Shown: piece after piece, positions 21,532-37,483 of the stretch
Numbering within the stretch: the stretch's first letter is position 1
Layout of the letters: every line of letters begins with the position of its first letter
Made by a program: the position numbers and the translations under genes
Assembly: GCA_903923465.1 (NCBI GenBank)
Contig: CAIXXP010000130.1
Span: 1 to 38,223 of the forward strand
Reading direction: 5' to 3'
Origin: an uncultured Sphingomonadales bacterium
Lineage (GTDB): Bacteria; Pseudomonadota; Alphaproteobacteria; Sphingomonadales; Sphingomonadaceae
DNA length: 38,223 nt
Notes under the pieces: model-generated
What the model was told of the DNA's origin: nothing
Database searches by the model: none
The model's input: only the letters and a program-made list of their open reading frames with translations

Positions 21532-22947
21532 ATGATACCTGAAGGCAGGCTCAATCCGGACGGGACAGTGGATGTTCCCACCTTCGACGGCGAATGGCTG
21601 CGCACGCTGCGGATGATGCGCCTGTCGGTGTATATCGGGCTGGCGCTGGGCGATGTGCTGGGGCTGGCCGCGGTCTTTGTCATCGCGGGGGCCTTCGTGG
21701 TGGATTTCACCACGCGCCAACTGCTGCTGCCCTCATGGTCGCTGATGCCGGGTGCGGCCTTTGTGCCGATGTTTCTGGCCATCGCCATTCAGCGCAAACC
21801 CTATTCCTCGCGCTTCCTTTATGACCCGGAGCGGGCATCGCGCGACACGCTTTCGGCGTTGGTGACGGCGGGCGTGCTGGTAGTTTTTCTGGCGCTGCGT
21901 TTTGATGGCGAGTTCCTGCATTCGGCCGAGGTCGTGGCGCTGGGCACCGTGCTCGGCGCGGGCTGGCTGGTGGGCTGGCACGGGCTGGCGGAGCGGATCG
22001 TGACGCGCCTGTTCAAGGGCCAGCCCACCGCCGTGGTCGCCATCATCGATGATATCGCCGTCGACCTGCCCTATGATTTTCCGACGATTTTCGCCGGTGT
22101 GGCCGGGTTGCGTCCCGATCGCAACGATCCCGGCGCGCTCGACGCGCTGGCCTCGGCCATCTTCGGCGTGGAGCGGGTGATCGTGGCCTGCAGCCCGGAG
22201 CGGCGGCCGCTGTGGATCGAGGTGTTCAAGGGCGCCAATGTGCAGGGCGAGCTGGTGCTGCCCGAAGTCGACTCGATCGGCGTGCTGCGCACGGGCCGCG
22301 CGGGGCCGAACACCACCGGCGTGGTCACGCTGGGCGCACTGGACACCACCAACCGCATCGTCAAGCGCAGCTTCGATCTGGCCGTGGGCCTCGGCGCCCT
22401 GGCCCTGACGTGGCCGGTGATGCTGGCCGCCGCCGTGGCGGTAAAGCTGGACAGCCCCGGACCCATTTTCTTCCGCCAGCCGCGCGTGGGCCGGGGCAAC
22501 CGCCAGTTCAACGTCTACAAGTTCCGTTCCATGCGCACCGACATGTGCGATGTCGCCGGCAACGCCTCCACCGGGCGGGTGGATCCGCGCGTGACCCGCG
22601 TGGGGGCCTTCATCCGCCGCACCAGCATCGACGAACTGCCGCAGATCTTCAACGTCATCCACGGCACGATGAGCATCGTCGGCCCGCGCCCCCATGCCGT
22701 GGCCAGCAAGGCGGCGGGGCAGATGTTCTGGGAACTGGACGAGCGCTATTGGCACCGCCACGCGATCAAGCCGGGCATCACCGGCCTGGCGCAGGTAAGC
22801 GGCTGGCGCGGCACCACCGAGACGGCGGACGATCTGACCAATCGCGTGGCGATGGACACCGCCTATATGCTCGACTGGACGGTGTGGCGCGATGTGGAAA
22901 TCCTGATCCGCACGGTGACGGTGCCGTTCCACAAGAACGCTTATTGA
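21532..22947 (+). CDS. Exopolysaccharide polyprenyl-phosphate sugar (glycosyl)transferase
   Basis: Bacterial sugar transferase domain: [61 protein letters not shown]...[36 protein letters not shown] 21532. Confidence 0.95.
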
Positions 22948-22967
22948 GCGGGGAAGGCAGGGAAGAC

Positions 22968-23150
22968 TTGGGGGCCTTAGGCCCCAAACCCCTTTACTGT
23001 CGGCGTTGTGCGTGGCTCTCGTCGCGGCGCCTTGCCGCGTAGCGCCTTTGAAAGCCTGCGGCGCGGTGAGGCGGGGCGTGGGGTGCCGTTGGCGCGTCCT
23101 TTCGCCGGGAGACGTTATGGGGTGCGGGGGGTAACCCCTCTGCGAATCTT
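22968..23150 (+). repeat. Structured intergenic repeat, copy A
   Basis: GGGGCCTTAGGCCCC end, ACTGTCGG, core GCCGCGTAGCGCCTTTGAAAGCCTGCGGCGCGGTGAGG, CGCCGGGAGACGTTATGGGGTGC, GGGGTAACCCC end. Confidence 0.85.
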
Positions 23151-23163
23151 TCGCCTCTTCCGC

Positions 23164-25050
23164 CTACTGCGCCGCTTCGTTCGCCCCGGCTTCCAAAGCC
23201 TCGCTCAGCCCCAGCCACTCGGCCTCGGCGGCTTCCATATCGGCGGCCAGCACGCCCCGGCGGCGGGAGAGTTCGCCCATGGCCAGCTTGGCGAGGTCTG
23301 GCTTGGCGCTGGCGGGGTCGAACATGGCGCGGTCGAGTTCGGAAACCTGCGCCTGCAATTTCGCCAGTTTCGCCTCGGCTTCGGACACTTGCTTCTTCAG
23401 CGCGCGCAAGGTCTCGCGGGCGGCGGCGGCGGCCTTGCGATCCTGCTTGGTGACTTTCGGCTTGCCGTCGCTGCCTTCCTTCGGTTGGTTGCGGCCCAGC
23501 ACCCAGTCGATGTAATCCTCGATGCTGCCGGCGAATTCCTTCGCCGTGCCGCCATCCACCAGCACCAGCCGGTCGGCGGTGAGTTCGACCATGTGGCGGT
23601 CGTGGCTGATGAGGATGACCGCGCCGGTATAGCTGTTCAGCGCCTGAACCAGCGCCTCGCGCGCGTCGATGTCGAGGTGGTTGGTCGGCTCGTCGAGGAT
23701 CAGCAGATGCGGCGCGTCTCGCGTAACCAGAGCCAGCGCCAGCCGCGCCCGCTCGCCGCCGGACAGCGTGGTGATCTGCGCCGTGGCGCGGTTGCCCGAA
23801 AAGCCGAAGCGGCCAAGCTGGGCGCGAATGGCGCCGGCGGAGGCTTCTTTCATCGCGCGGGTCATCAGTTCCAGCGGCGTGGCGTCGGAATCCAGCTCTT
23901 CCACCTGATACTGGGTGAAATAGCCGATCTGCATCTTGCCGGCGGTGTGGATCTCGCCGGCCATCGGCGTCAGCTGCGCGGCCAGCAGGCGGGCCAGCGT
24001 GGTCTTGCCGTTGCCGTTGCGCCCCAGCAGGGCGATGCGGTCATCAGGGTCGATGCGCAGGTTCAGCCGCTGGAGGATCGGCGTATCGGCCGCATAGCCC
24101 ACCGCCGCCAGATCCAGCGTGATCAGCGGGGGGCGCAGTTCGCTGGGATCGGGGAAATCGAAGCTGAGCGTCGGGTCTTCCAGCTGCGCGGCGATGGGCT
24201 GCATCTTGGCCAGCATCTTGGCGCGGCTTTGCGCCTGCTTCGCGGTGGAGGCGCGGGCGCTGTTGCGGGCGACGAAATCCTTCAGCTTGGCCGCCTGCGT
24301 CTCTTGCGCGGCGCGGGCCGAGGCGATCTGGGCCAGCCGCTCGCTGCGCTGGCGCTCGAAACTGTCGTAACCGCCGGGATAGAGCGTCAGCTTGCCGCCG
24401 GTGAGGTGGACGATATGGTCGACCACATTGTTCAGCAGGTCGCGCTCGTGGCTGATGATGATCAGTGTGCCGGGATAGGATTTGAGGAAATTCTCCAGCC
24501 ACAGCGTCGCTTCAAGGTCGAGGTGGTTCGAGGGCTCGTCGAGCAGCAGCACGTCGGGTGCGGAAAACAGCAGGCTGGCCAGCGCCACGCGCATTTTCCA
24601 GCCGCCGGAGAAGCTGTCGAGCGGCTGGCCCTGCATCTCCTCGTCGAAGCCAAGGCCGATGAGAATGCGCGCGGCGCGGCTGGGGGCGGAATAGGCGTCA
24701 ATCGCCAGCAGCCGCTCGTGGACATCGCCCAGCCGGTCGGGATCGTGGCAGGTTTCGGATTCGGCGAGCAGCTCGGTGCGCTCGACATCGCTGGCCAGCA
24801 CCGTCTCGAAGGGGGTGGCGGTGCCGCTGGGGGCCTCCTGCGCGATATAGCCGAGGCGCGTGCGCCGGGGCATGTCCACGCTGCCCTCGTCGGGGTCGAT
24901 CTCGCCGATGATCGCCTTGACCAACGTGGATTTTCCCGCGCCATTGCGGCCGATAAGCCCCACCTTGCCGCGCGGCGGTATCGCCACGCTGGCGCCATCG
25001 AGGATGTTGCGCCCGCCAAGGCGCACAGTGATTCCCTGAATTGTCAGCAT
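23164..25050 (-). CDS. ABC-F family ATP-binding protein (Uup/YheS-like)
   Basis: Two ABC domains (GLIGRNGAGKST, ALLGRNGNGKTT), two signature/Walker B pairs (FSGGWKMRVALA...LLLDEPSNHLD; LSGGERARLALA...LILDEPTNHLD), no TM segments. Confidence 0.95.
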   Translation of the reverse strand: MLTIQGITVRLGGRNILDGASVAIPPRGKVGLIGRNGAGKSTLVKAIIGEIDPDEGSVDMPRRTRLGYIAQEAPSGTATPFETVLASDVERTELLAESETCHDPDRLGDVHERLLAIDAYSAPSRAARILIGLGFDEEMQGQPLDSFSGGWKMRVALASLLFSAPDVLLLDEPSNHLDLEATLWLENFLKSYPGTLIIISHERDLLNNVVDHIVHLTGGKLTLYPGGYDSFERQRSERLAQIASARAAQETQAAKLKDFVARNSARASTAKQAQSRAKMLAKMQPIAAQLEDPTLSFDFPDPSELRPPLITLDLAAVGYAADTPILQRLNLRIDPDDRIALLGRNGNGKTTLARLLAAQLTPMAGEIHTAGKMQIGYFTQYQVEELDSDATPLELMTRAMKEASAGAIRAQLGRFGFSGNRATAQITTLSGGERARLALALVTRDAPHLLILDEPTNHLDIDAREALVQALNSYTGAVILISHDRHMVELTADRLVLVDGGTAKEFAGSIEDYIDWVLGRNQPKEGSDGKPKVTKQDRKAAAAARETLRALKKQVSEAEAKLAKLQAQVSELDRAMFDPASAKPDLAKLAMGELSRRRGVLAADMEAAEAEWLGLSEALEAGANEAAQ

Positions 25051-25129
25051 CGCGCCCGACTAGCAGAGGTGAGCGATAAGGGAAGGGATGATGCGGCGGT
25101 GCACAAGAAAAGCATTCGGGGAGCCGAGA

Positions 25130-25316
25130 AGGTGCGAGGGCCATCGCCCTCGCGCTCCCAATACTGTCGGGGTTTGGGCAAGGCTGGCGGCGGTGCGCCC
25201 CGCCGCGTAGCGGCTGTTAAGGCCTGCGGCGCGGTGAGGTTTTGCGGGACGGTGCCATTGGCGCCCCCTCTCGCCGGAAGACGTTATGGGGTGCAGGCGG
25301 GGGTAACCCCCCTGCA
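25130..25316 (+). repeat. Structured intergenic repeat, copy B
   Basis: GCGAGGGCCATCGCCCTCGC end, CTCCCAATACTGTCGG, core GCCGCGTAGCGGCTGTTAAGGCCTGCGGCGCGGTGAGG, CGCCGGAAGACGTTATGGGGTGC, GCAGGCGGGGGTAACCCCCCTGC end. Confidence 0.85.
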
Positions 25317-25443
25317 TTTGCCCTTTCCCATCACCAACCTGCGCGATAGGCCCGCGCCACCAGCGGGGTGGATTTTACCCCGAGAGCGCGTGTAGACGGG
25401 GCGAGCCGATGATCGCCCCCACCCCTCAGCCAGGAAGTGCCGC

Positions 25444-26550
25444 ATGAAGACCCGCGCCGCCGTTGCCTTTGCCGCCAAGCAGCCGCTGGAGATTGTCGAG
25501 CTGGATCTGGAGGGCCCCCGGGCGGGCGAGGTTCTGGTCGAGATCATGGCCACGGGCATCTGCCACACCGATGCCTATACGCTGGATGGGCTGGACAGCG
25601 AGGGGATCTTCCCCAGCGTGCTTGGCCATGAGGGCGCCGGCATCGTGCGCGAGGTGGGCGTGGGCGTGACCAGCGTGAAGCCCGGCGATCACGTCATCCC
25701 GCTCTACACGCCGGAATGCCGCCAGTGCAAAGCGTGCCTTTCGGGCAAGACCAACCTGTGCACCGCCATCCGCGCGACGCAAGGGCGGGGGGTGATGCCC
25801 GATGGCACCAGCCGCTTCAGCTACAAGGGGCAGACCATCTTCCACTACATGGGCTGCTCCACCTTCAGCAATTTCACCGTGCTGCCCGAGATCGCCGTGG
25901 CGAAAATCCGTGAGGATGCGCCGTTTCAGACCAGCTGCTATATCGGCTGCGGGGTGACGACGGGCGTGGGGGCGGTGGTGAACACCGCCAAGGTGCGCCC
26001 CGGCGACACGGTGGTGGTGTTCGGCCTGGGCGGCATCGGGCTGAACGTGATTCAGGGCGCGCGCATGGCCGGGGCCGACCGCATCGTCGGCGTCGACATC
26101 AATGCCGACAAGGAGGAATGGGGCCGCCGCTTCGGCATGACCGATTTCGTCAACCCCCGGGCCACGCCCAATGTCGTCGAGCATCTGGTGGCGCTGCTGG
26201 ATGGCGGGGCGGATTACAGCTTCGACTGCACCGGCAATACCGAAGTGATGCGGCAGGCGCTGGAATGCTGCCATCGCGGCTGGGGCCAGTCGATCATCAT
26301 CGGCGTGGCAGAGGCGGGCAAGGAAATCAGCACCCGCCCGTTCCAGCTCGTCACCGGCCGGGTGTGGAAGGGCACGGCGTTTGGCGGCGCCAAGGGCCGC
26401 ACCGATGTGCCAAAGATCGTCGACTGGTACATGAACGGCAAGATCGAGATCGACCCGATGATCACCCATGTCCTGACGCTGGAGGAGATCAACGACGCCT
26501 TCACCCTGATGCACGAGGGCAAGAGCATTCGCAGCGTGGTGGTGTTCTGA
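25444..26550 (+). CDS. frmA: S-(hydroxymethyl)glutathione dehydrogenase / class III alcohol dehydrogenase
   Basis: [70 protein letters not shown]; full length 368 aa. Confidence 0.96.
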
Positions 26551-26939
26551 TGAGCAACCAGCAGGAAAGAGCGATGTTCACGCACAGTTGCCTGGGCACG
26601 AATGATGTCGAGAAATCGCGCGCGTTCTACACTGCCGTGATGGGTGCCCTTGGCTATTCCGCCACGCCGCTGCCGAATGCCACGGTGTTTCCCTCGGAAA
26701 CCGGCTCGCTGATCATTTGCAAACCGGCCAACGGCGAGCCGCACACCGTATCCAACGGCCACACGCTCGGCTTTGCCGCCAGGGATTCGGTGCAAGTCGA
26801 TGCCTTCCACGTGGCGGGCCTGGCCCATGGTGGCAGCGACGAGGGCGCGCCGGGCATTCGCCCCAATGGCAAATATGGCGCTTATTTGCGCGATCCCGAC
26901 GGCAACAAGATTTGTGCCTTTGCCCCTGGCGCCGGCTGA
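26550..26939 (+). CDS. VOC (glyoxalase/dioxygenase-like) family protein
   Basis: FTHSCLGTNDVEKSRAFYTAVMGALGY...YGAYLRDPDGNKICAF; ATG overlaps the frmA stop (TGATG). Confidence 0.9.
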   Translation: MSNQQERAMFTHSCLGTNDVEKSRAFYTAVMGALGYSATPLPNATVFPSETGSLIICKPANGEPHTVSNGHTLGFAARDSVQVDAFHVAGLAHGGSDEGAPGIRPNGKYGAYLRDPDGNKICAFAPGAG

Positions 26940-26955
26940 TCCGAAAGCAACTACG

Positions 26956-27396
26956 ATGGACTCCCCCTCTCATCTGGCCGAGATCCTCGCCGCCCATGCC
27001 GGGCGCGAGGGGGCCTTGTTGCCCATCCTGCATGATGTGCAGGCGGCGTTTGGCTGCGTGACCGGCGAGGCGGAGGCGGCCATTGCCGAGGCGCTGAACC
27101 TCTCCCGCGCCGAGGTGCATGGGGTGGTGAGCTTCTATCACGATTTCCGCGAGACCGCTGACCCGCGCCCCCACCTGCAGATCTGCCGGGCCGAGGCCTG
27201 TCAGGCGCGGGGGGTGGAGGCGCTGATGGCGGCGGCGCAGCAGGCGGCGGGCACGCGCGTCGCGCTGGAGGCGGTTTATTGCCTTGGCCTGTGCGCGGCG
27301 GGGCCGGCGGCCCGGGTTGTCGGGGCGGATGTGGGCGAGGCGCTGCATGCGCGGCTGGATGCGGGCAGTCTGACCCGCCTGATCGAGGGCCTGTGA
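26956..27396 (+). CDS. fdsG: NAD-dependent formate dehydrogenase gamma subunit (NuoE-like)
   Basis: NuoE-like [2Fe-2S] fold: LHDVQAAFGCVTGEAEAAIAEALNLSRAEVHGVVSFYHDFR...CRAEACQARG...YCLGLCAAGPAARV. Confidence 0.9.
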   Translation: MDSPSHLAEILAAHAGREGALLPILHDVQAAFGCVTGEAEAAIAEALNLSRAEVHGVVSFYHDFRETADPRPHLQICRAEACQARGVEALMAAAQQAAGTRVALEAVYCLGLCAAGPAARVVGADVGEALHARLDAGSLTRLIEGL

Positions 27397-28943
27397 TGCG
27401 CGTGCGGATCTCTAACGACGCGGTGGCGATGGCCTGCGGCGGCGAGGCGGTGGCGGCGGCGTTCGCGGCGGCGGGCTGCGCGGTGGAGCGGGTTTCCGGC
27501 TGGGGCATGCACTGGCTGGAGCCGCTGGTGGAGATTGAGGGCGCCAAGGGCTGGACGGGCTTTGGCCCGGTGGCGCCCGGCGATGTGCCGGCGATTCTGG
27601 CCGGGACCAGCGCGCTGGGGATTGGCGCGGTCGCCGAGCATCCTTTCATCACCGCCCAGACCCGGCTGACCTTCATGAGGGCCGGGCGGATACGGCCCCT
27701 GAGCCTCGACGATTACGCCGGCACGGGTGGCTGGCAGGGCCTGGCGCGGGCGCGATCGCTGGCGCCCGCCGAGGTGGTGGCGGCGGTCATCCAGTCGGGC
27801 CTGCGCGGCCGGGGCGGGGCGGGCTTCCCGGCCGGCATCAAGTGGCAGAAGGTTGCCAATGCTTTTGGGGGGAGCGCGGCTGGCGCGCGCAAGTTCATCG
27901 TCTGCAATGCCGACGAGGGCGACAGTGGCACCTTCGCCGACCGCATGGTGATGGAAGGCGACCCGTTTGCCCTGATCGAGGGCATGGCGATTGCTGCCCA
28001 TGCGGTGGGTGCGGGGGCGGGCTACATCTACCTCCGCAGCGAGTATCCGCATGCCATCGCCACCATGCGCGCGGCCATTGCCCTTGCGGCGGAGCGGATC
28101 GCGCCGTTCAGCGTGGAGTTGCGGGTGGGCGCCGGGGCTTATGTGTGCGGCGAGGAGACGGCGCTGCTCAACTCCATTGAGGGCAAGCGCGGCGTGGTGC
28201 GGGCCAAGCCGCCGCTGCCGGCGTTGCAAGGCCTGTTCGGCTGCCCGACGGTGGTGAACAATGTGCTGACGCTGGCGGCTGTCAGCCATATTCTGCGGGA
28301 AGGTGGCGCGGCGGACTATGCCGCGCTGGGCGTGGGGCGATCCAAAGGCACCATGCCGGTGCAACTGGGCGGCAATATCGCGCGCGGCGGGCTGGTGGAG
28401 GTGCCGTTTGGCATTACCCTTGGCGAATTGATCCATGATTTCGGCGGTGGCACCGCCTCTGGCCGCCCGGTGAAGGCCGCGCAGGTGGGCGGGCCGCTGG
28501 GCGCCTATATGCCGCCTGACCAATTCCATCTGCCGCTGGATTACGAGGCCTTCACCGCCGCCGACGCGCTGATCGGCCATGCCGGGGTGGTGGTGTTTGA
28601 CGACACCGCCGACATGGGGCGCCTCGCCCGCTTTGCCATGGAATTCTGCGCGGTGGAGAGCTGCGGCAAATGCACGCCCTGCCGGATTGGCAGTACGCGG
28701 GGGGTGGAACTGATCGACCGCATCCGCGCCGGCAGCACGGTGGATGCCCTCGCCAGCCAGCCGCAAATACGCAATGCCCCCAAGGCCGCGCCCAGCCGCG
28801 CGGCGGACATCGCCCTGCTGGAGGACCTGTGCGACACGATGCGCGGCGCCTCGCTGTGCGCGCTGGGGGGCTTTACGCCCTATCCGGTGCTCTCCGCCCT
28901 GAAGCACTGGCCAGAAGATTTCGGCGGGGATTTTGGGGCATGA
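27396..28943 (+). CDS. fdsB: NAD-dependent formate dehydrogenase beta subunit (NuoF-like)
   Basis: SGLRGRGGAGFPAGIKW, NADEGDSGTFADRMVMEGDPF, EYPHAIATMRAAI, ESCGKCTPCRIGSTRG. Confidence 0.93.
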   Translation: MRVRISNDAVAMACGGEAVAAAFAAAGCAVERVSGWGMHWLEPLVEIEGAKGWTGFGPVAPGDVPAILAGTSALGIGAVAEHPFITAQTRLTFMRAGRIRPLSLDDYAGTGGWQGLARARSLAPAEVVAAVIQSGLRGRGGAGFPAGIKWQKVANAFGGSAAGARKFIVCNADEGDSGTFADRMVMEGDPFALIEGMAIAAHAVGAGAGYIYLRSEYPHAIATMRAAIALAAERIAPFSVELRVGAGAYVCGEETALLNSIEGKRGVVRAKPPLPALQGLFGCPTVVNNVLTLAAVSHILREGGAADYAALGVGRSKGTMPVQLGGNIARGGLVEVPFGITLGELIHDFGGGTASGRPVKAAQVGGPLGAYMPPDQFHLPLDYEAFTAADALIGHAGVVVFDDTADMGRLARFAMEFCAVESCGKCTPCRIGSTRGVELIDRIRAGSTVDALASQPQIRNAPKAAPSRAADIALLEDLCDTMRGASLCALGGFTPYPVLSALKHWPEDFGGDFGA

Positions 28944-28985
28944 GGCGCGGCGTGCTATCATGCGGGCGGAAGCTGGAGACAGATC

Positions 28986-31907
28986 ATGGGCTATGAGCCT
29001 CAGGCCGATTTCGGCACGCCACGGATAGACGCGGCGGCAGAGGTGTCCCTCACCATCGACGGGCGCGCCATCACCGTGCCCGAGGGCACCAGCGTGATGC
29101 GGGCGGCGGCATTGGCGGGTGGCAACATTCCCAAGCTGTGCGCCACCGATAGTGTGGAGGCCTTTGGCTCCTGCCGCATGTGTCTGGTCGAGGTTGAGGG
29201 GATGCGCGGCACCCCCGCCAGCTGCACCACGCCGGTGGCGCCGGGCATGGTGGTCGCCACGCAAACGCCCCGGCTGGAGAAGCTGCGGCGCGGGGTGATG
29301 GAGCTGTATATTTCCGACCACCCGCTCGATTGCCTGACCTGCAGCGCCAACAATGATTGCGAGTTGCAGGACGCCGCGGCGCAAGTGGGCCTGCGCGATG
29401 TGCGCTATGGCTATGCTGGCGCCAACCATCTGGCGGAGGTGAAGGACACCTCGAACCCCTATTTTTCCTTCGATGCCGCCAAATGCATCGTCTGCTCGCG
29501 CTGTGTGCGGGCGTGTGACGAGGTGCAGGGCACGCTGGCGCTGACCATCAGCGGGCGGGGTTTTGGCTCGCAGGTGAGCGCGGGGCAGGCGGGGGACGAC
29601 TTCCTTTCCAGCGATTGCGTGTCTTGCGGCGCCTGCGTGCAGGCCTGCCCGACCGATGCGCTGAACGAGAAGGCGGTGGCCGAGATCGGCAAGCCGGAGC
29701 GCTCGGTGATCACCACCTGCGCCTATTGCGGCGTGGGCTGCACCTTCCGCGCCGAGATGCGCGGCGAGCAGCTGGTGCGCATGGTGCCGTGGAAGGATGG
29801 CAAGGCCAACCGGGGGCATAGCTGCGTCAAGGGCCGCTTTGCCTGGGGTTATGCCCAGCACAAGGATCGCATCCGCAGCCCGATGATCCGCGAGAGCATC
29901 GATCAGCCGTGGCGCGAGGTAGGCTGGGACGAGGCGCTGGCCTTCACCGCGTCACGCCTCACGGCGATCAAGGCAAAGCACGGGCCGAGGGCGCTGGGGG
30001 GCATCACCTCCAGCCGCTGCACCAATGAGGAAGTGTTCCTCGTGCAGAAGCTGATCCGCAGCGGCTTTGGCAGCAACAATGTCGATACTTGCGCGCGGGT
30101 GTGCCACTCGCCCACCGGCTATGGGCTGAAGACCACCTTCGGCACCAGCGCCGGCACGCAGGATTTCGACAGCGTGGAGGCGGCCGACGTCATCCTCGTG
30201 ATCGGCGCCAACCCCACGGACGCGCACCCGGTGTTTGCCAGCCGGATGAAGAAGCGGATCAGGGGCAAAGACGGTCAACCGGGCGCCAAGCTCATCGTCA
30301 TCGACCCGCGCCGGATTGATCTGGTGCGCAGCCCGCATATTGCGGCGGCGCATCACCTGCCGCTGCAGCCGGGCACCAATGTGGCGGTGCTGACCGCCAT
30401 GGCGCATGTCATCGTGACCGAAGGGCTGGCCGACGAGGCGTTCATCCGCGAGCGCTGCGATTGGGACGAGTATCAGGACTGGGCGCGGTTTGTCGCCGAC
30501 CCGCGCCATTCCCCCGAGGTGCTGGAGGCGGTGAGCCGGGTGCCGGCGGCGGAATTGCGGGCGGCGGCACGGTTGTATGCAACTGGTGGGAGCGGTTTTG
30601 GCGCGGCGCAGGGCCGCAAACCAAATGCGGCGATCTATTATGGGCTGGGGGTGACCGAGCACTCGCAGGGTTCCTCCACGGTGATGGCGATTGCCAACCT
30701 CGCCATGGCCACCGGCAATATCGGCAGGCCCGGCGTGGGCGTGAACCCGCTGCGCGGGCAGAACAACGTGCAGGGCAGCTGCGACATGGGCAGCTTTCCG
30801 CACGAGCTTTCGGGCTATCGGCATATTTCGGGTGGGGCCACCCGCGCGCTGTTCGAGGCCGAATGGGGCACCGCGCTCGACAGCGAGCCGGGCCTGCGCA
30901 TTCCCAACATGTTCGATGCCGCGCTGGATGGCTCGTTCCGGGCGTTGTACGTTCAGGGGGAGGATATTCTGCAATCCGACCCCGATACCAAACACGTTTC
31001 GGCGGGGCTGGCGGCGATGGAACTGGTCATCGTCCACGACCTGTTCCTCAACGAGACCGCCAATTACGCCCATGTCTTCCTGCCGGGTTCCACTTTCCTC
31101 GAAAAGACCGGCACCTTCACCAATGCCGAGCGCCGCATCCAGATGGTGCGGCGGGTGATGCAGCCGGCCAACGGGGCTGGCGACGGCATAGGCAAGGAGG
31201 GGCTGGAGGACTGGCAGGTGACGCAGGCGCTGGCCAACGCGCTGGGGCTGGGCTGGAACTATGCCAATACTGCGCAGATCATGGACTAGATCGCCCGGCT
31301 GACGCCGAGCTTCGCCGGGGTTTCCCATGCGGCGCTGGAGGCGGCGGGATCGCTGCAATGGCCGGTGAACGAGGCGCACCCCGAGGGCAGCCCGATCATG
31401 CATGTTGATGGCTTTGTGAGGGGGAAGGGCAAGTTCGTCGTCACCGACTATATCCCCACCGACGAGAAGACCGGGCCGCGCTTCCCGCTGCTGCTGACCA
31501 CGGGCCGCGTGCTCAGCCAGTATAACGTCGGCGCGCAGACGCGGCGCACGGAAAACGGCGTGTGGCATGGCGAGGATGTGCTGGAGATCCACCCCACCGA
31601 CGCCGAGAACCGGGGCGTGGCCAGCGGCGACTGGGTGAGCCTGACCAGCCGCAAGGGCGATGTCTCGCTGCGCGCGCAGATCACCGACCGGGTGGCGCCG
31701 GGCGTGGTCTATACCACCTTCCACCACCCCGAAACCCAGGCCAATGTGGTGACCACCGAGTTTTCCGACTGGGCGACCAATTGCCCGGAATACAAGGTGA
31801 CGGCGGTGCAGGTGGGGCGCTCGAACGGCCCCAGCGAGTGGCAGCGCGACTATGCCGCCCAGACCACGGCATCGCGCCGGATAGTGGGCCATGAGGCGGC
31901 TGAATGA
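28986..31907 (+). pseudogene. fdsA: NAD-dependent formate dehydrogenase alpha subunit with an in-frame TAG at 31287-31289
   Basis: N-terminal 2Fe-2S and 4Fe-4S domains and molybdopterin domain with NNVDTCARVCHSPTGYGL; after TAG the same frame continues IARLTPSFAGVSHAALEAAGSLQWPVN...GRVLSQYNVGAQTRRTENGV...HPTDAENRGVASGDWV... to 31907. Confidence 0.88.
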
Positions 31908-32107
31908 TGAATACCGCACCACTGATCCGCATGGCCAACGACATCGCCCGCAATCTGGCCGCCGGCGGGCAGGACGCGGCGATAAGTGGCACGGTTCAGC
32001 ATATCCGCGACTTCTGGGACCCGCGCATGAAGGCGGCGATTCTGGCCAGCGACCGCGCGGGGCTGTGCCCGATCGCGGCGGCGGCGGTGGAGCGTTTGGC
32101 CGGGTAG
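31904..32107 (+). CDS. fdsD: Formate dehydrogenase delta subunit
   Basis: LIRMANDIARNLAA...VQHIRDFWDPRMKAAIL; overlaps the fdsA stop. Confidence 0.88.
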   Translation: MMNTAPLIRMANDIARNLAAGGQDAAISGTVQHIRDFWDPRMKAAILASDRAGLCPIAAAAVERLAG

Positions 32108-32154
32108 GCCGGATTAAGGGCGATGTGGGCAAGGGATAGAAGCGGGGACTCGTC

Positions 32155-32365
32155 GCCTGCACCCCATGACGTCTTCCGGCGCGAGGGTGGTGGGGGGGGG
32201 CGGCGTGGCGCATCACCTCACCGCGGCGCAGGCTTTCCGGAGCATTGTGTCAAAATGGGGGGGGGGGCGGTTTTTGCCTCGACGCAACCGCCTTATAGCC
32301 GCTTCGCGGCGGGCGCCGGGCCGAGGCTAATCGCGACGACGACAGTAATGGGGTTTGGGGCCCCT
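32155..32365 (-). repeat. Structured intergenic repeat, copy C (inverted, with G-tracts)
   Basis: Minus strand reads GGGGCCCCAAACCCCATTACTGTCG ... GCCGCGAAGCGGCTATAAGGC ... AAAGCCTGCGCCGCGGTGAGG ... CGCCGGAAGACGTCATGGGGTGCAGGCG. Confidence 0.8.
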
Positions 32366-32444
32366 ACCGGTTTCGCTTGAGAAGCCGGCAACCCACGAAG
32401 CCCCCAAGTCTAACCCTTTTCCCTTTCCCAAAACAAGCCAACCC

Positions 32445-32490
32445 CAAAAACCGGTTCCCACTTTCTTCCGCGATGCTCTAGAGCGCGTGG
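32445..32490. repeat. Short intergenic repeat-like sequence AAAAACCGGTTCCCACTTTCTTCCGCGATGCTCTAGAGC
   Basis: ACCGGT and GCTCTAGAGC palindromes; resembles from memory a motif frequent in alphaproteobacterial intergenic DNA. Confidence 0.5.
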
Positions 32491-32508
32491 CAAATCAGGA
32501 GATTGCCA

Positions 32509-33369
32509 ATGTCGCGCGAAGCCCATGTCCTCACCCTGTTCTGCCCCGACCGGCCGGGGCTGGTGGCCGGTGTGGCGCGCATTCTGGCCGATCAGGGCGG
32601 CAACATCCTCGACGCGAAGCAGTTCAACGATACCGAGACGCAGCGCTTCTTCATGCGTGTGGCTTTCGAACTGGTGGGCGACAGCACGCGGGACGGGTTC
32701 AAGGTGGCGTTCGCCCATTTTGCCGCGGCGAACGGCATGCAATGGTCGGTGCGCGGCGCGGGCGACAAGCGCAAGGTGATGCTGCTGGTCTCCAAATTCG
32801 ACCATTGCCTGGGCGATCTGCTGTATCGCCAGCGCATTGGCGAGTTGCCGATGGAGGTGGTGGGGATCATCTGCAACCACCCGCGCGAGGCGCTGACGGT
32901 CTCGTGGATCGACGATATTCCGTTTCATTATCTGCCCGTCACCAGGGACACCAAGCCCGCGCAGGAGGCCCAGATCAAGGCGCTGGTGACCGAGAGCGGC
33001 GCCGAGCTGGTGGTGCTGGCGCGCTATATGCAAATTCTGTCGGACGATCTGGCCGGATTCCTGTCGGGCCGCTGCATCAATATTCACCACAGCTTCCTGC
33101 CCGGCTTCAAGGGGGCCAAGCCCTATCATCAGGCGCATGCGCGCGGGGTGAAGATGATCGGCGCCACCGCCCATTACGTGACGGCCGATCTCGATGAAGG
33201 CCCGATCATCCACCAGGATGTCGAGGCGATCAGCCACGCCGACAGCCCCGACGATCTGGTGCGCAAGGGTCGCGATATCGAGCGGCGGGTGCTGGCGCAG
33301 GCGGTGCTGTGGCATCTGCAGGACCGCGTGTTGCCCAATGACCACAAGACGGTGGTGTTCGGCGACTGA
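32509..33369 (+). CDS. purU: Formyltetrahydrofolate deformylase
   Basis: N-terminal ACT domain [32 protein letters not shown]; formyltransferase motifs [49 protein letters not shown]. Confidence 0.96.
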
Positions 33370-33430
33370 GGGCGCCGCTGCCGGACAATCCGGGTGACAG
33401 GCTGCTGTCGGCGGCTTATTGCGCGGGGGC

Positions 33431-33865
33431 ATGAGCCTGCTTCGCTCCTTCCTGCGTGATCGCCCGCTGCTGGCGCTGCTGCTGCTGTCGGCGGCGCTGG
33501 GCATGAAGGCGCTGGTGCCCGCGGGCTTCATGCTGGAAACCGCCGACCGCGCGATCAGCGTGGAAATCTGCGGCGAGCAAGGTGCCGGACTTGCCCTGAC
33601 CGAGAGCCGGGCGGTCGTGCAGGCGATTGCCGCCAAGCTGCCCGCCCCGGGCGAGCACAAGGGCCACGGCGGGACGGACACCGCCTGCCCCTATGCCACG
33701 CTGGCCATGGCCGCGCTGGGCGGGGTGGATGCGCCGTTGCTGGCCATCGCCCTGGCCTTTGCCATGGCGCTGGCCTTCCTGCCCATGGCCGGGCCGGCGG
33801 TGCCACGGGCGGCGCGGTTGCGCCCACCCCTGCGCGGGCCACCCCGCTTCCGCTTCGGCGCCTGA
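33431..33865 (+). CDS. Small membrane protein, DUF2946-like
   Basis: Two TM segments, LVPAGFML, central His/Cys region (GEHKGHGGTDTACPYATLAM), terminal RLRPPLRGPP. Confidence 0.6.
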   Translation: MSLLRSFLRDRPLLALLLLSAALGMKALVPAGFMLETADRAISVEICGEQGAGLALTESRAVVQAIAAKLPAPGEHKGHGGTDTACPYATLAMAALGGVDAPLLAIALAFAMALAFLPMAGPAVPRAARLRPPLRGPPRFRFGA

Positions 33866-33955
33866 CTGCCAGCTGACCTCGCCCTCCCCCGGAGGCGCGC
33901 GCCGGTTCGGCCTTGGGCATGAAGCCCGCCCCTCACGCTAGTTCGACCCGCATGG

Positions 33956-33980
33956 TGCGCCGCCTTGGCGCGCCGGCGCA
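33956..33980. other. Hairpin in the leader of the Cys-rich barrel gene
   Basis: TGCGCC...GGCGCA inverted repeat with additional internal pairing, 34 nt before ATG 34014. Confidence 0.3.
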
Positions 33981-34013
33981 TGACGCGAAGATCATTTCAA
34001 AAGGTTAGATGAT

Positions 34014-35021
34014 ATGAAAACCGGTGTATTCACCGTCGCCCGGCCCGCGCTTGCGGTCGTGGCACTCGCCTCGCTGCTGTCCTCCACCGCCGCCCATGCC
34101 TGCGCCTGCGGCTGCGGCGTGTTCGACGTCGGCGCGGCCTCGATCATGCCCAGCAATTCCGAGACCGGCTTCAGTGCCTGGTTTCGCTTCAACACCATCG
34201 ACCAGAACCGCAATTGGGAGCGCGGCGCGCAGGCCCCCGCCGACGACAATGGCGACAAGCGCCTGCAAACCGAATTCTACACGCTGGGTGGGCAATACAG
34301 GCTCAACCACGCATGGACGGTGATGGCCGACCTGCCGATCGTCTCGCGCCGCTTCACCCGCATTGATGACGATGGCGGGGTGACCGGCAGCGCCGGCAGC
34401 CTCTATACCGGTCGCCTCACCGCGCTCGGCGATGTGGCGGTGACGGCGATGTATACCGGCCTGTCGGCAGACATGTCGACCGGGCTGGGGCTGGGGCTGA
34501 AACTGCCCACCGGCGATTCCACCGGCCCCAGGGGCCCCGCCGGCGGCGCCCAGTTCGACCGCGACAGCCTGCCCGGCACCGGCAGCACCGACGCCATCCT
34601 CACCGCCTATCACGTCGGCCGTCTCGATGCGACGGGGCGCTTCGGCTGGTTCGGCCAGGCGCGCTATCAGTTCGCCCTGGCCACGCGGGACTCCTATCGG
34701 CCGGGTAATGAACTCAATACCTCGCTGGGCGCCAGCTATGATCTGGGCGCGGTAGGGCCTGTCACCCGCGTGGCACCGGTGCTGTCGCTGATAAACAGCC
34801 TGCGCGCCCACGATTCCGGCACCAATGCCGATCCGCTGAACTCCGGCTATGAGCGGCTGCTGATCGCGCCGGGGGTGAATATGCGGTTGGGCAAGCTGCG
34901 GCTCTATGCCGATATCGAACTGCCGATCTACCAGCATGTGAACGCCGATGTGGTACCGGGGCAATCCGGGCAACTGGTGGCGGGGCATTTGTTCAACGCG
35001 ACGCTGTCTTACGATTTTTGA
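34014..35021 (+). CDS. Predicted secreted/outer-membrane beta-barrel protein with Cys-rich mature N-terminus
   Basis: Signal peptide ending STAAHA followed by CACGCGVFDVG; alternating beta-strand pattern, C-terminal LFNATLSYDF. Confidence 0.65.
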   Translation: MKTGVFTVARPALAVVALASLLSSTAAHACACGCGVFDVGAASIMPSNSETGFSAWFRFNTIDQNRNWERGAQAPADDNGDKRLQTEFYTLGGQYRLNHAWTVMADLPIVSRRFTRIDDDGGVTGSAGSLYTGRLTALGDVAVTAMYTGLSADMSTGLGLGLKLPTGDSTGPRGPAGGAQFDRDSLPGTGSTDAILTAYHVGRLDATGRFGWFGQARYQFALATRDSYRPGNELNTSLGASYDLGAVGPVTRVAPVLSLINSLRAHDSGTNADPLNSGYERLLIAPGVNMRLGKLRLYADIELPIYQHVNADVVPGQSGQLVAGHLFNATLSYDF

Positions 35022-35035
35022 TTTTGGAGGAAGGT

Positions 35036-35212
35036 AGGTGCGAGGGGGTTACCCCCTCGCGCTCCCATTCCCTGTCGTTGTTACGCCACGGGTTCGGCCT
35101 TCCGCCACATCGCCGCGCCGTAGGCTGTTAAAGCCGCTGCGCGGCAGGGCGCGAGGCCGAGAGGGAAGCGCGAAGAGGACAGTAATGGAGTTTGGGGCCT
35201 AAGGCCCCAGGA
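35036..35212 (-). repeat. Structured intergenic repeat, copy D (inverted)
   Basis: Plus strand GCGAGGGGGTTACCCCCTCGC (35040-35060) at one end and GGGGCCTAAGGCCCC (35194-35208) at the other; minus-strand core GCCGCGCAGCGGCTTTAACAGCCTACGGCGCGG. Confidence 0.85.
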
Positions 35213-35242
35213 AAATTTCTTCCCCCTTTTATCTTCTGCCCC

Positions 35243-37483
35243 TCACAACGTCTTGGAAACCCCCACAAACACCCCGCGCCGCTGGCCGAACGAGGGCGCA
35301 CCCACGCCGACGCCGGTGCCGTCGCGGATTTCATAGACCTTGTCGAACAGGTTCTCGACATCCAGCCGCACATCGAAGCCGCTGGCGCCAAAGCTGTGGC
35401 CGATGGAGAGGTTTACCGTGGCATAGGCGGGCAGATGCGCGCCGTTGGGCACGGATTCGCCGCCCGGCAAATCCAGCGCGCGACGCAGGCCGGAGCCATA
35501 GAGCAGGTCGGCGCTGATACGACTGCCCGCCAGCGCGCCGTGGCTCCAGCGATAGGAGCCGCCGGCCGAGCCGGTGAGGGTCTGGTTGTGGTCGAGATAG
35601 ATGTAGTGCGTGGCGATGTAGTTCAGATCGATCTGGCTGAAATTATACTGGTTGGAATCAATGCCGGTGCCCTGCGCCTTGTCCACCGAGATATTGGCAT
35701 AGGCGGACAGCCCGTGGTGGACGTAGTTGAGGCTCATCTCGGCGCCGATGATGCGCCCCTTGGCATAGTTGAACGGGGTGAGGATGATCGGCGCGCCGAA
35801 CTGGCCCTCGTCCACCAGATGCGTCGAGCGGCGGAAATAGCCATCCAGCCCCAGCACGAGGCCGGGCAGGAGTTTCTGCTGAATGCCGGCATCGAGATAG
35901 TTCTCGCGCTGGGCATAGGCCGGGTTGGCAACGCGGACATTGGGCGTGGCGACCGTGCCGAACAGCGGCGCCAGATTGCTGCCGGCCACCAGTTCGAACG
36001 GGGCGGGCGAGAAATAGCGGGCATAGCCGACATGGCCGGTGAAGCCGCCGCCGAGGAAGCCGGGGCCGGGCGTCCACACCATGTTCACCCGGGGGGAGAA
36101 CTGGCGCTCGTGGCGGATGACGTCGTTCTCGTCGAAGCGCCCGCCATAGTTCAGCACCAGCCGGGGGGTCAGCTGCCACTCATCCTGCAGATAGGCGCTG
36201 TAGGTCGTCTGGCTGACGCTGGTGGTCTGGGCAAAGGCGTCGGGCGGGGTACCTGGGGTATAGGTGCCGGGCTGGTAGCCCAGCTCGGGTCGGGTGGGGT
36301 CGTAGACGTCGCCGCTGGTGGGGAATAGCTGCGTCTGCGTCTGGGTTTTGGAGTGATCGCGCTGAAGGAACAGGCCGAAGCGCAGCGTGTGGGCGCTACC
36401 CAGCTTGTAGACCCCGTCGAACTGGGCGCCATAGGCGACATCATGCTTGGCGGCGGCCTGTGCCATGCCGTTGAACAGCAGCTCGCCGGCGACGTCGGGG
36501 TGATAGTCCAGCGCCGAAACCCGCGCGAACAGCGAGGTTTGTGCGGTGAAGGCGCCCGCGCTGTGCAACAGGCTGAAGGCGCCGAAGCCGGTGGCCTGCA
36601 ACTGGGTTTCGTTAAGATCCTCGCTGGGAAAGGTGGAGACGCCGTCCAGCGTGTAGCCGTTGCTGGGCTGCAACCCCACGGGATTGGGGATCTGGAAATG
36701 CTGGTTGGAATAGCCGCCGGTGAAGGCGATGCGGTCGTTGTCACCCAGGATGTGGTCGATATAGCCGAAGGTGCTGAACTGGTTGGTCTTGTCGTGCACG
36801 GCGCTGGTGTTGCCGTTCACATTGTCGATGCCCAGCGCGTTGTGCTTGTAGTCGCCGGAGGCAAACCAGGTGGTGGCGCCGGAGCTGCCCGAAAGCTGCA
36901 CGCTCGGCTCGATGGTATCGTGGCTGCCGCCGTAAAGGCTGAAGGTGGTGGCATCCTTCAGGCCGGATTTGGTGGTGATGTCGATGATGCCCGCCGTGCG
37001 CAGGCCATATTGCGCCGGTAGCGTGCCGGTGACGAGGTCCAGCTTCTCGATCAGGCGGGGCGAGAGGGTCTGGCCGAACACCGCGATGCTTTCGGGCAGG
37101 ATGACGCCGTTGAGGCGATATTGCACGCCATTGTGCTCGTCTCGCACGTGGAACTGGCCGAACTGGTCCTGGCTGACGCCGGGCAATTGCAGGATGATGT
37201 CGTTGATTGGCTGGTTGTCGCTGCCCGGCAGGTTCTGGATCGCGGCATTGCTGAGGGTATAGGTGGAGGCGCCGAGGCTCGGCTTGATGCTTTCGCGCGC
37301 GGTATCTAGGCGGTGGCCGGTGACGACAATCTCGGCGCCGGTAGGGGGTGCCGCCGGGGTGGTGTCGGCTCCGCTGGCGCCGGCCTCCGTGTTCGCCAGG
37401 GCCGCGCCGGCATGGGCGCAGGCCAGTGCCCACAGAGCCACCCCCAGCGCGCGTGGGGCAGGCAAACGGCGCGGAGTGGTCAT
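35243..37483 (-). CDS. TonB-dependent receptor
   Basis: Signal peptide, plug domain (ALGASTYTLSNAAIQNLPGSDNQPINDIILQLPGVSQDQFGQFHVRDEHNGVQYRLNGVILPE), TonB barrel with LDVENLFDKVYEIRD; ATG 37483 preferred over ORF start 37582. Confidence 0.9.
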   Translation of the reverse strand: MTTPRRLPAPRALGVALWALACAHAGAALANTEAGASGADTTPAAPPTGAEIVVTGHRLDTARESIKPSLGASTYTLSNAAIQNLPGSDNQPINDIILQLPGVSQDQFGQFHVRDEHNGVQYRLNGVILPESIAVFGQTLSPRLIEKLDLVTGTLPAQYGLRTAGIIDITTKSGLKDATTFSLYGGSHDTIEPSVQLSGSSGATTWFASGDYKHNALGIDNVNGNTSAVHDKTNQFSTFGYIDHILGDNDRIAFTGGYSNQHFQIPNPVGLQPSNGYTLDGVSTFPSEDLNETQLQATGFGAFSLLHSAGAFTAQTSLFARVSALDYHPDVAGELLFNGMAQAAAKHDVAYGAQFDGVYKLGSAHTLRFGLFLQRDHSKTQTQTQLFPTSGDVYDPTRPELGYQPGTYTPGTPPDAFAQTTSVSQTTYSAYLQDEWQLTPRLVLNYGGRFDENDVIRHERQFSPRVNMVWTPGPGFLGGGFTGHVGYARYFSPAPFELVAGSNLAPLFGTVATPNVRVANPAYAQRENYLDAGIQQKLLPGLVLGLDGYFRRSTHLVDEGQFGAPIILTPFNYAKGRIIGAEMSLNYVHHGLSAYANISVDKAQGTGIDSNQYNFSQIDLNYIATHYIYLDHNQTLTGSAGGSYRWSHGALAGSRISADLLYGSGLRRALDLPGGESVPNGAHLPAYATVNLSIGHSFGASGFDVRLDVENLFDKVYEIRDGTGVGVGAPSFGQRRGVFVGVSKTL

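What the first reader, a model, noticed from the sequence alone, without database searches (positions are those of the whole stretch)
22968..35212. Family of about 180-210 bp structured intergenic repeats with a conserved core and interchangeable palindromic ends
Seen directly: four homologous copies, A 22968-23150, B 25130-25316, C 32155-32365 (inverted), D 35036-35212 (inverted). Common parts are ACTGTC near one end, a palindromic core GCCGCGnAGCGGCTnTnAAnGCCTGCGGCGCGG, and in A-C the block CGCCGGAAGACGTTATGGGGTGC. The ends are hairpins of different types (GGGGCCTTAGGCCCC, GCGAGGGGGTTACCCCCTCGC, GCAGGCGGGGGTAACCCCCCTGC) that appear swapped among copies. Copies sit only between genes, in convergent (A, D), divergent (B) and co-directional (C) gaps, so simple bidirectional termination does not explain all of them. 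Inference: a mobilised non-autonomous element (MITE/REP-like) or a structured RNA/DNA element of this lineage. I do not recognise a named family.
Basis: partly seen in the sequence, partly recalled or inferred. Interest (0 to 1): 0.75.

Follow-up and report, generated by a model that had tools for sequence, protein, structure and literature searches.

The report
Modular hairpin-ended repeats at gene ends
The bacterium (a Novosphingobium relative) carries roughly 240 copies of a ~175-base, hairpin-ended repeat, almost always just behind the ends of genes; its two halves and hairpin tips have been shuffled among copies and copies come and go between species, so it behaves like the mobile palindromic repeats of other bacteria but without their usual transposase.

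Summary
In 405 kb of this genome I aligned 48 complete copies; the whole genome holds about 240. Each copy is ~166-192 bp from outer hairpin to outer hairpin. It consists of two half-units joined at a TTTAAA-like core junction, and each half ends in a terminal hairpin (types alpha, beta, gamma). Stem bases, hairpin tips and whole halves reassort between copies. Copies fill most long convergent gaps (20/27), some co-directional gaps, and few divergent gaps (4/44), and they start ~20-50 nt after stop codons. Core orientation is random relative to genes.

Comparison with a sister species (~80-85% identical) shows shared, rearranged and absent copies at syntenic sites, plus one reduced to a solo hairpin. 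One 91% identical pair looks recently copied. Relatives occur in 22 of 196 genomes of the genus and not detectably beyond it. No Y1/RAYT transposase was found in 11 of 12 repeat-bearing genomes tested. The inner core shows no covariation, so an RNA-gene reading is not supported; only the terminal hairpins show compensatory change.

Best reading: a REPIN/BIME-like or MITE-like non-autonomous element family with an unidentified mobiliser, tolerated and possibly used as bidirectional 3'-end hairpins.

The parts
22968..23143 (+). Copy A, outer hairpin to outer hairpin (alpha ... core ... beta), in the convergent gap 22947-23164
   Evidence: orthologous copy in G017 lacking the beta hairpin
22968..22987 (+). 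Copy A alpha terminal hairpin TTGGGGGCC-TTA-GGCCCC-AA followed by ACCCCTTTACTGTC
   Evidence: sequence; stem analysis
23034..23066 (+). Copy A core GCCGCGTAGCG-CCTTTGAAA-GCCTGCGGCGCGG (junction of the two halves)
   Evidence: alignment A1
23124..23143 (-). Copy A beta terminal hairpin with subterminal block GCACCCCATAACGTCTCCCGGCG
25134..25315 (+). Copy B (gamma ... core ... beta), divergent gap 25050-25444
25134..25153 (+). Copy B gamma hairpin GCGAGGGC-CATC-GCCCTCGC followed by GCTCCCAATACTGTC; near-identical 27-39 nt matches in many genus members
25293..25315 (-). Copy B beta hairpin
32142..32407 (-). Copy C (alpha ... core ... beta, inverted), co-directional gap 32107-32509; carries a ~70 bp insertion in the core
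32355..32407 (-). Copy C alpha hairpin with an extended apical stem (cap) CCGGTTTCGCTTGAGAAGCCGG
   Evidence: sequence
35040..35209 (-). Copy D (alpha ... core ... gamma, inverted; no beta end), convergent gap 35021-35243
   Evidence: the alpha hairpin plus AAAATTTCTT is the only copy end called terminator-like
22948..22967 (+). Purine-rich outer flank of copy A, typical of all copies (mirror pyrimidine tract outside the other hairpin)
   Evidence: position frequencies over 78 flanks

Best explanation
This is a family of non-autonomous, palindromic interspersed repeats that works like a REPIN/BIME or hairpin-ended MITE. The unit is an inverted dimer of two half-units. Each half is a terminal hairpin, a subterminal motif (C[CT]CCCATTACTGTC, or ACCCCATAACGTCT[CT]CCGGCG for beta), an arm and half of the GC-rich core. 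Shown: high copy number, near-fixed length, empty versus full sites between species, one recent-looking copy pair, half/end/tip reassortment, strong concentration behind stop codons, and absence of a detectable Y1/RAYT transposase in nearly all carriers tested. Inferred: the unit spread at DNA level, with hairpins recognised as folded single strands by an enzyme acting in trans that has been lost or not identified; insertions near promoters were purged; copies behind genes survive because they are neutral or because they give both convergent genes a stable 3'-end hairpin.
For: About 240 copies above control; 88 exact end motifs against 0 control; 48 complete copies with inner length clustered at 128-131 and 137-144 nt. 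Convergent gaps are bimodal, <100 bp without an element or 187-298 bp mostly with one, as expected of a ~180 bp insertion. Syntenic sites in G017 lack the element (L036 643, 8749, 15004; L037 2189), keep only one hairpin (L036 13006), or share it (A, L036 11374 and 18182, L035 19378, L046 688). Copies L036 643 and 4151 are 91% identical, and the G017 sequence at both gene junctions has no element. Left-half and right-half similarity are only weakly correlated (Mantel r=0.18), with clear chimeras, e.g. L052 7396/9778 left 0.84, right 0.52 and L008/L012 right 0.86, left 0.53. Placement bias replicates in two other species: G218 convergent 11/15 against divergent 3/24, G173 6/11 against 1/19. Core orientation is random.
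Against: No transposition event or target-site duplication was demonstrated; at ~80% flank identity the ends of the empty sites cannot be aligned exactly. No mobilising enzyme was found. Many copies are old and shared, so current activity is uncertain. The near-saturation of long convergent gaps is stronger than neutrality alone would easily give, which hints at function.
Confidence: 0.62

Rival explanations
1. Bidirectional transcription terminators or mRNA 3'-end stabilisers: each terminal hairpin followed by a pyrimidine (C/U) tract stops or protects transcripts arriving from either side, and copies are kept by selection for that function.
For: Tight placement ~20-50 nt after stop codons (median centre-to-stop 116 bp against 194 bp to start codons). 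20/27 long convergent gaps filled, few divergent ones. Symmetric, strand-indifferent design. Purine-rich 5' and pyrimidine-rich 3' outer flanks. At one syntenic site G017 has an unrelated strong GC hairpin instead (L037 2189). Terminal stems keep pairing through compensatory changes.
Against: Only one end in the window (copy D) has a T-rich tail that the terminator scan accepts, and the scan total is at chance (10 found, shuffles 10.1). The element is much larger than a terminator needs. Divergent copies exist (B). Ordinary hairpin-plus-T terminators also occur in this genome, one directly beside a copy (L046 497). Not exclusive with the best explanation.
Confidence: 0.25
2. RAYT-mobilised REPINs whose RAYT has been lost or lies in the unassembled 11% of this genome.
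For: The dimer-of-hairpins architecture, high copy number, 3'-of-gene placement and intergenic location match REP/REPIN descriptions (PMC3116915, PMC2817692, PMC3733652). RAYT-like Y1 genes occur in some genus members.
Against: No Y1_Tnp hit in G000 or in ten other repeat-bearing genomes, seven of them at least 99% complete; the twelfth, G117, has one partial hit. None of the Y1 loci retrieved from relatives has these hairpins with their subterminal blocks in its flanks. The GTAG foot is not the consensus here.
Confidence: 0.15
3. A structured non-coding RNA family (cis-regulatory or sRNA) dispersed in the lineage.
For: Strongly foldable (z -1.8 as DNA for A, -2.3 as RNA for B). Invariant core bases.
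Against: One of 26 pairs has a double change in the inner part. Random orientation to genes. No Rfam match. No consistent downstream gene seen.
Confidence: 0.05

Closest known systems
REPINs / BIMEs (inverted pairs of REP sequences; PMC3116915, PMC2817692)
   Same: Hundreds of short palindromic dimers between genes, mostly behind coding regions; two inverted hairpin-tagged halves; singlet remnants.
   Different: Longer unit (~175 bp); hairpins at the outer ends with a conserved inner motif; no GTAG/GGAG foot as consensus; no RAYT in nearly all carriers; three interchangeable end types plus a large conserved core.
CGTC-tagged REPs of Alphaproteobacteria (PMC3733652)
   Same: Alphaproteobacterial, predominantly inverted (HH) dimers, mainly in convergent or unidirectional gaps, no dedicated transposase; the beta end holds ACGTCT and alpha/gamma ACTGTC (TGTC is an accepted variant of the tag).
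   Different: CGTC REPs have the tag directly at an 8-9 bp stem starting with AT, 4-5 nt loops and a CCA tail; here the motif lies between a GC-rich hairpin and an arm, with no such stem. A CGTC-type REP appears to occur separately in a genus member (G031, L077).
Correia/NEMIS, ERIC, BOX/RUP and other bacterial MITE-like repeats (from general knowledge; PMC2229807 and PMC3049150 found by search, not read in full)
   Same: 100-200 bp, intergenic, palindromic, modular, non-autonomous.
   Different: No sequence relation claimed; TIR/TA target-site features of those MITEs not seen; ends here are snap-back hairpins with exchangeable tips.
IS200/IS605-type ends
   Same: Subterminal hairpins that could be recognised as folded single strands.
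   Different: No transposase ORF between any pair of ends in the regions examined.

Membership tests
RAYT-associated REP/REPIN | Conserved GTAG (or GGAG) tetranucleotide at the 5' foot of the hairpin | tested here: not met
   Flank consensus is purine-rich ..AAG[AT]C: position -5 A 0.54/T 0.23, -4 A 0.64, -3 G 0.67 over 78 flanks
RAYT-associated REP/REPIN | A RAYT (Y1_Tnp) gene in the genome | tested here: not met
   0 hits in G000 and ten other carriers, a partial hit in G117 only; positive controls ring. G000 is 88.9% complete
RAYT-associated REP/REPIN | RAYT gene flanked by copies of the repeat | tested here: not met
   No alpha/beta/gamma hairpin with its subterminal block at the Y1 loci L082-L111; only isolated loose (<=3 mismatch) hairpin-like matches
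RAYT-associated REP/REPIN | Many short palindromic units, largely as inverted pairs, in intergenic DNA | tested here: met
CGTC-tagged REP | CGTC (TGTC/CCTC) tag directly followed by an 8-9 bp stem starting with AT, 4-5 nt loop, CCA tail | tested here: not met
   After ACGTC/ACTGTC the sequence is TCCCGGCG or GGCGTTG-like; no such stem in 29 aligned copies
CGTC-tagged REP | No associated transposase; inverted dimers; convergent/unidirectional gaps | tested here: met
MITE (non-autonomous DNA transposon) | Presence/absence polymorphism at orthologous sites | tested here: met
   G000/G017 comparison
MITE (non-autonomous DNA transposon) | Target-site duplications | tested here: inconclusive
   Flanks of empty sites in G017 are too diverged to align the junctions exactly
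MITE (non-autonomous DNA transposon) | Autonomous partner with the same ends | tested here: not met
   No transposase-sized gap between facing ends in 405 kb of G000; in 400 kb of G218/G173 the long-distance pairs inspected were chance matches in genes. Most of each genome not examined
Intrinsic (bidirectional) terminator | Stable hairpin immediately followed by a U-rich tract | tested here: not met
   Outer tract is C/U mixed; one of eight ends in the window passes
Structured RNA family | Covarying base pairs / Rfam match | tested here: not met
   1 of 26 pairs with a double change in the inner part; no Rfam hit. Terminal hairpins do show compensatory changes

The most novel reading that the evidence does not exclude
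A transposase-less class of bacterial interspersed palindromes that replicates and exchanges at the level of half-units and hairpin tips (by hairpin-templated replication/repair or an unknown trans-acting enzyme), and that has been taken over genome-wide as the standard bidirectional 3'-end structure of convergent gene pairs in this Novosphingobium lineage.
Probability: 0.18. Interest if true: 0.75.

Novelty: new variant of a known kind. Interest (0 to 1): 0.48.

Why it matters
REP-like repeats without a transposase in Alphaproteobacteria are an acknowledged puzzle (PMC3733652). This family gives a clean test case: hundreds of copies, recognisable halves, full/empty sites between sister species and a strong link to gene 3' ends. 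It would let one ask how such elements copy themselves without RAYTs, and whether they become part of the host's transcription-termination system. No earlier description turned up in the searched literature, which holds open-access papers only.

Tried and rejected
Rfam scan of the window: nothing. RAYT/Y1 hypothesis: searched and largely rejected. Conserved RNA core: rejected for lack of covariation. Coevolved closing stem between the outer purine and pyrimidine flanks: rejected, own-partner pairing 9.49 against shuffled 9.49. Matching loops at the two ends of one element: rejected, 4 of 40 against 5.0 expected. Using the C-gap in many species as empty sites: failed because synteny to the downstream gene is not conserved. 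Autonomous elements with distant ends in G218: inspected and found to be chance matches in genes. Spread by plasmids or phages: no match for copy B in either collection; one loose gamma-hairpin match in a viral contig, not followed. Literature on sphingomonad or Novosphingobium REP/MITE families: nothing specific.
Full report
WHAT IS THERE. The window is contig C130 of a 2.96 Mb, 88.9% complete assembly (G000). Its nearest held relative is G017 (= uncultured Sphingomonadales Umea_bin-08241, inferred from matching contig number and lengths). The genus is Novosphingobium, inferred from the N. flavum record hit. The four copies are real. Copy B alone retrieves 47 further HSPs in the genome although only 40 of 324 candidates were scored. 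The core pattern occurs 307 times against 69 for the reversed control. The exact end motif YCCCRWTACTGTC occurs 88 times against 0.

ANATOMY. In 405 kb of own sequence, 48 complete copies were collected; part of this sequence was chosen because it holds hits, so its density is biased upward. Outer hairpin to outer hairpin is 166-192 bp. The inner region is mostly 137-144 nt, or 128-131 nt for a second class. The element is a dimer of halves joined at a TTTAAA-like spacer between GCCGC[GN]AGCGGC and GCCTGCGGCGCGG. Each half carries an arm, a subterminal motif and a terminal hairpin. There are three hairpin bases: alpha TTGGGG/CCCCAA, beta GCAGGGG/CCCCTGC, gamma GCGAGGG/CCCTCGC. The subterminal motif is C[CT]CCCATTACTGTC for alpha and gamma and ACCCCATAACGTCT[CT]CCGGCG for beta. 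Chimeras with an alpha stem on a beta motif, or the reverse, also occur. Outside the hairpins lie purine-rich (left) and pyrimidine-rich (right) flanks of at least 20 nt.

STRUCTURE AND MODULARITY. Perfect terminal stems of 8-10 bp were found in 68 of 94 ends; three bases combine with several tips (TGTTACA, CCTTAGG, CTAG, GTTAC, ACTCGT, CCATCG), which is compensatory variation. I chose the stems by best complementarity, so this count leans towards pairing. The inner region shows essentially none: 26 predicted pairs, one with a double change, covariation term -0.09. Left-half and right-half similarity are weakly correlated (r=0.18, 17 of 1000 permutations reach it). Several pairs share one half (0.84-0.88) and not the other (0.46-0.53). 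A second palindrome, TGTGCCGATTT..AAATCGGTTGGC, occurs seven times in 405 kb, always inside a terminal hairpin loop and always in the same orientation.

PLACEMENT. Genes were called with a codon-usage script, not a published gene finder. Among gaps of at least 160 bp, complete elements fill 20 of 27 convergent, 26 of 58 co-directional and 4 of 44 divergent gaps. Convergent against divergent gives Fisher p=2e-8. Most other long convergent gaps hold tRNAs, probable missed ORFs or a diverged copy. Convergent gaps without an element are nearly all under 100 bp. Two distant relatives repeat the bias: G218 11/15 against 3/24 (p=3e-4), G173 6/11 against 1/19 (p=4e-3). Element centres lie at a median 116 bp from stop codons but 194 bp from start codons. 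Core orientation is random relative to genes: co-directional 16 same, 9 opposite; convergent 11 and 8.

HISTORY. Copy A is at the orthologous place in G017, though its beta hairpin is lost there. In the syntenic stretch around C4:20-40 kb, elements at L036 643, 8749 and 15004 have no counterpart in G017. L036 13006 is a single hairpin there. L037 2189 is replaced by an unrelated GC hairpin. L036 11374 and 18182, L035 19378 and L046 688 are shared, some of them rearranged. Copies L036 643 and 4151, 3.5 kb apart, are 91% identical, and the G017 sequence at both gene junctions lacks an element. Gain versus loss cannot be polarised without an outgroup, so 'recent copy' is an inference.

DISTRIBUTION. 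The covariance model finds relatives in 22 of 196 genus genomes. G030 and G218 carry gamma/beta forms, with 25 paired elements in 200 kb of G218. G080, G105, G117, G134, G173 and others carry a fourth end type, GCCTCCGGCGGGCAAAGGG..CCCTTTGCAATCCC. Beyond the genus, the exact end motif stays at control level in the sampled members of the order. Copy B has no match in the plasmid or phage collections.

MOBILISER. No Y1_Tnp (RAYT/IS200) gene is found in G000 or in ten of eleven other carriers tested; G117 has a partial hit. Y1 loci of relatives are not flanked by the hairpins. No autonomous element with these ends was seen in the regions examined.

INTERPRETATION. Shown: a high-copy, near-fixed-length, half-modular, hairpin-ended repeat that differs in presence between sister species and sits behind genes. 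Inferred: DNA-level spread as a REPIN-like dimer with a lost or unknown trans-acting enzyme, and selection against insertions upstream of genes. A terminator or 3'-end-protection role is plausible from placement, but the U-tract signature is missing from all but one window end. REPs and CGTC REPs are the nearest named kinds (PMC3116915, PMC3733652). The element fails the GTAG foot, RAYT association and CGTC-stem tests, so I file it as a new variant of the REP/MITE kind and not as a member of either named family.

Noticed in passing
L008:1460, L026:1469, L030:1650, L047:17265, L052:179, L052:2386, L054:13887: A directional ~33 bp palindrome (TGTGCCGATTT..AAATCGGTTGGC) occurs only inside terminal hairpin loops of the elements; one variant has its stem fully replaced by compensation (CCGGTTCC/GGAACCGG). 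Presence in a loop differs between G000 and G017, and it also occurs in G120.
   Followed up: partly
window 32230-32300: Copy C contains a ~70 bp insertion with a 10-12 G run in its core, plus an extended alpha hairpin apex at 32355-32407.
   Followed up: no
L026, L035:5278, L047:11984, L054:9569 (outer flanks): Outer purine flanks of some copies are expanded into microsatellites such as (GGGTAGA)n, (GGGTGAA)n, (GGGGAA)n; L035:5394 has a triple tandem of CCGGAAGACGTTAAGG inside the beta end.
   Followed up: no
G080, G105, G117, G134, G173 (L188-L194, L209): A related element family with a different end hairpin, GCCTCCGGCGGGCAAAGGG..CCCTTTGCAATCCC, with outer inverted repeats GCCTCCGGCGGG/CCCGCCGGAGGC.
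   Followed up: partly
L060-L066 (G014, G029, G007, G031, G010, G020, G005): Solitary gamma hairpin plus GCTCCC, 92-100% identical over 27-31 nt, preceded by a purine tract but without the rest of the element; possibly the ancestral single unit.
   Followed up: no
L232:374-398: A single gamma-type hairpin plus GCTCCC match in an IMG/VR viral contig.
   Followed up: no
L077 (G031:C98): A genuine-looking CGTC-tagged REP (TTCGTCATCCCCGCGCAGGCGGGGATCCAG) near a gamma hairpin whose loop holds CCCTTCGACAAGCTCAGGA, a sequence I recall as widespread in bacteria.
   Followed up: no
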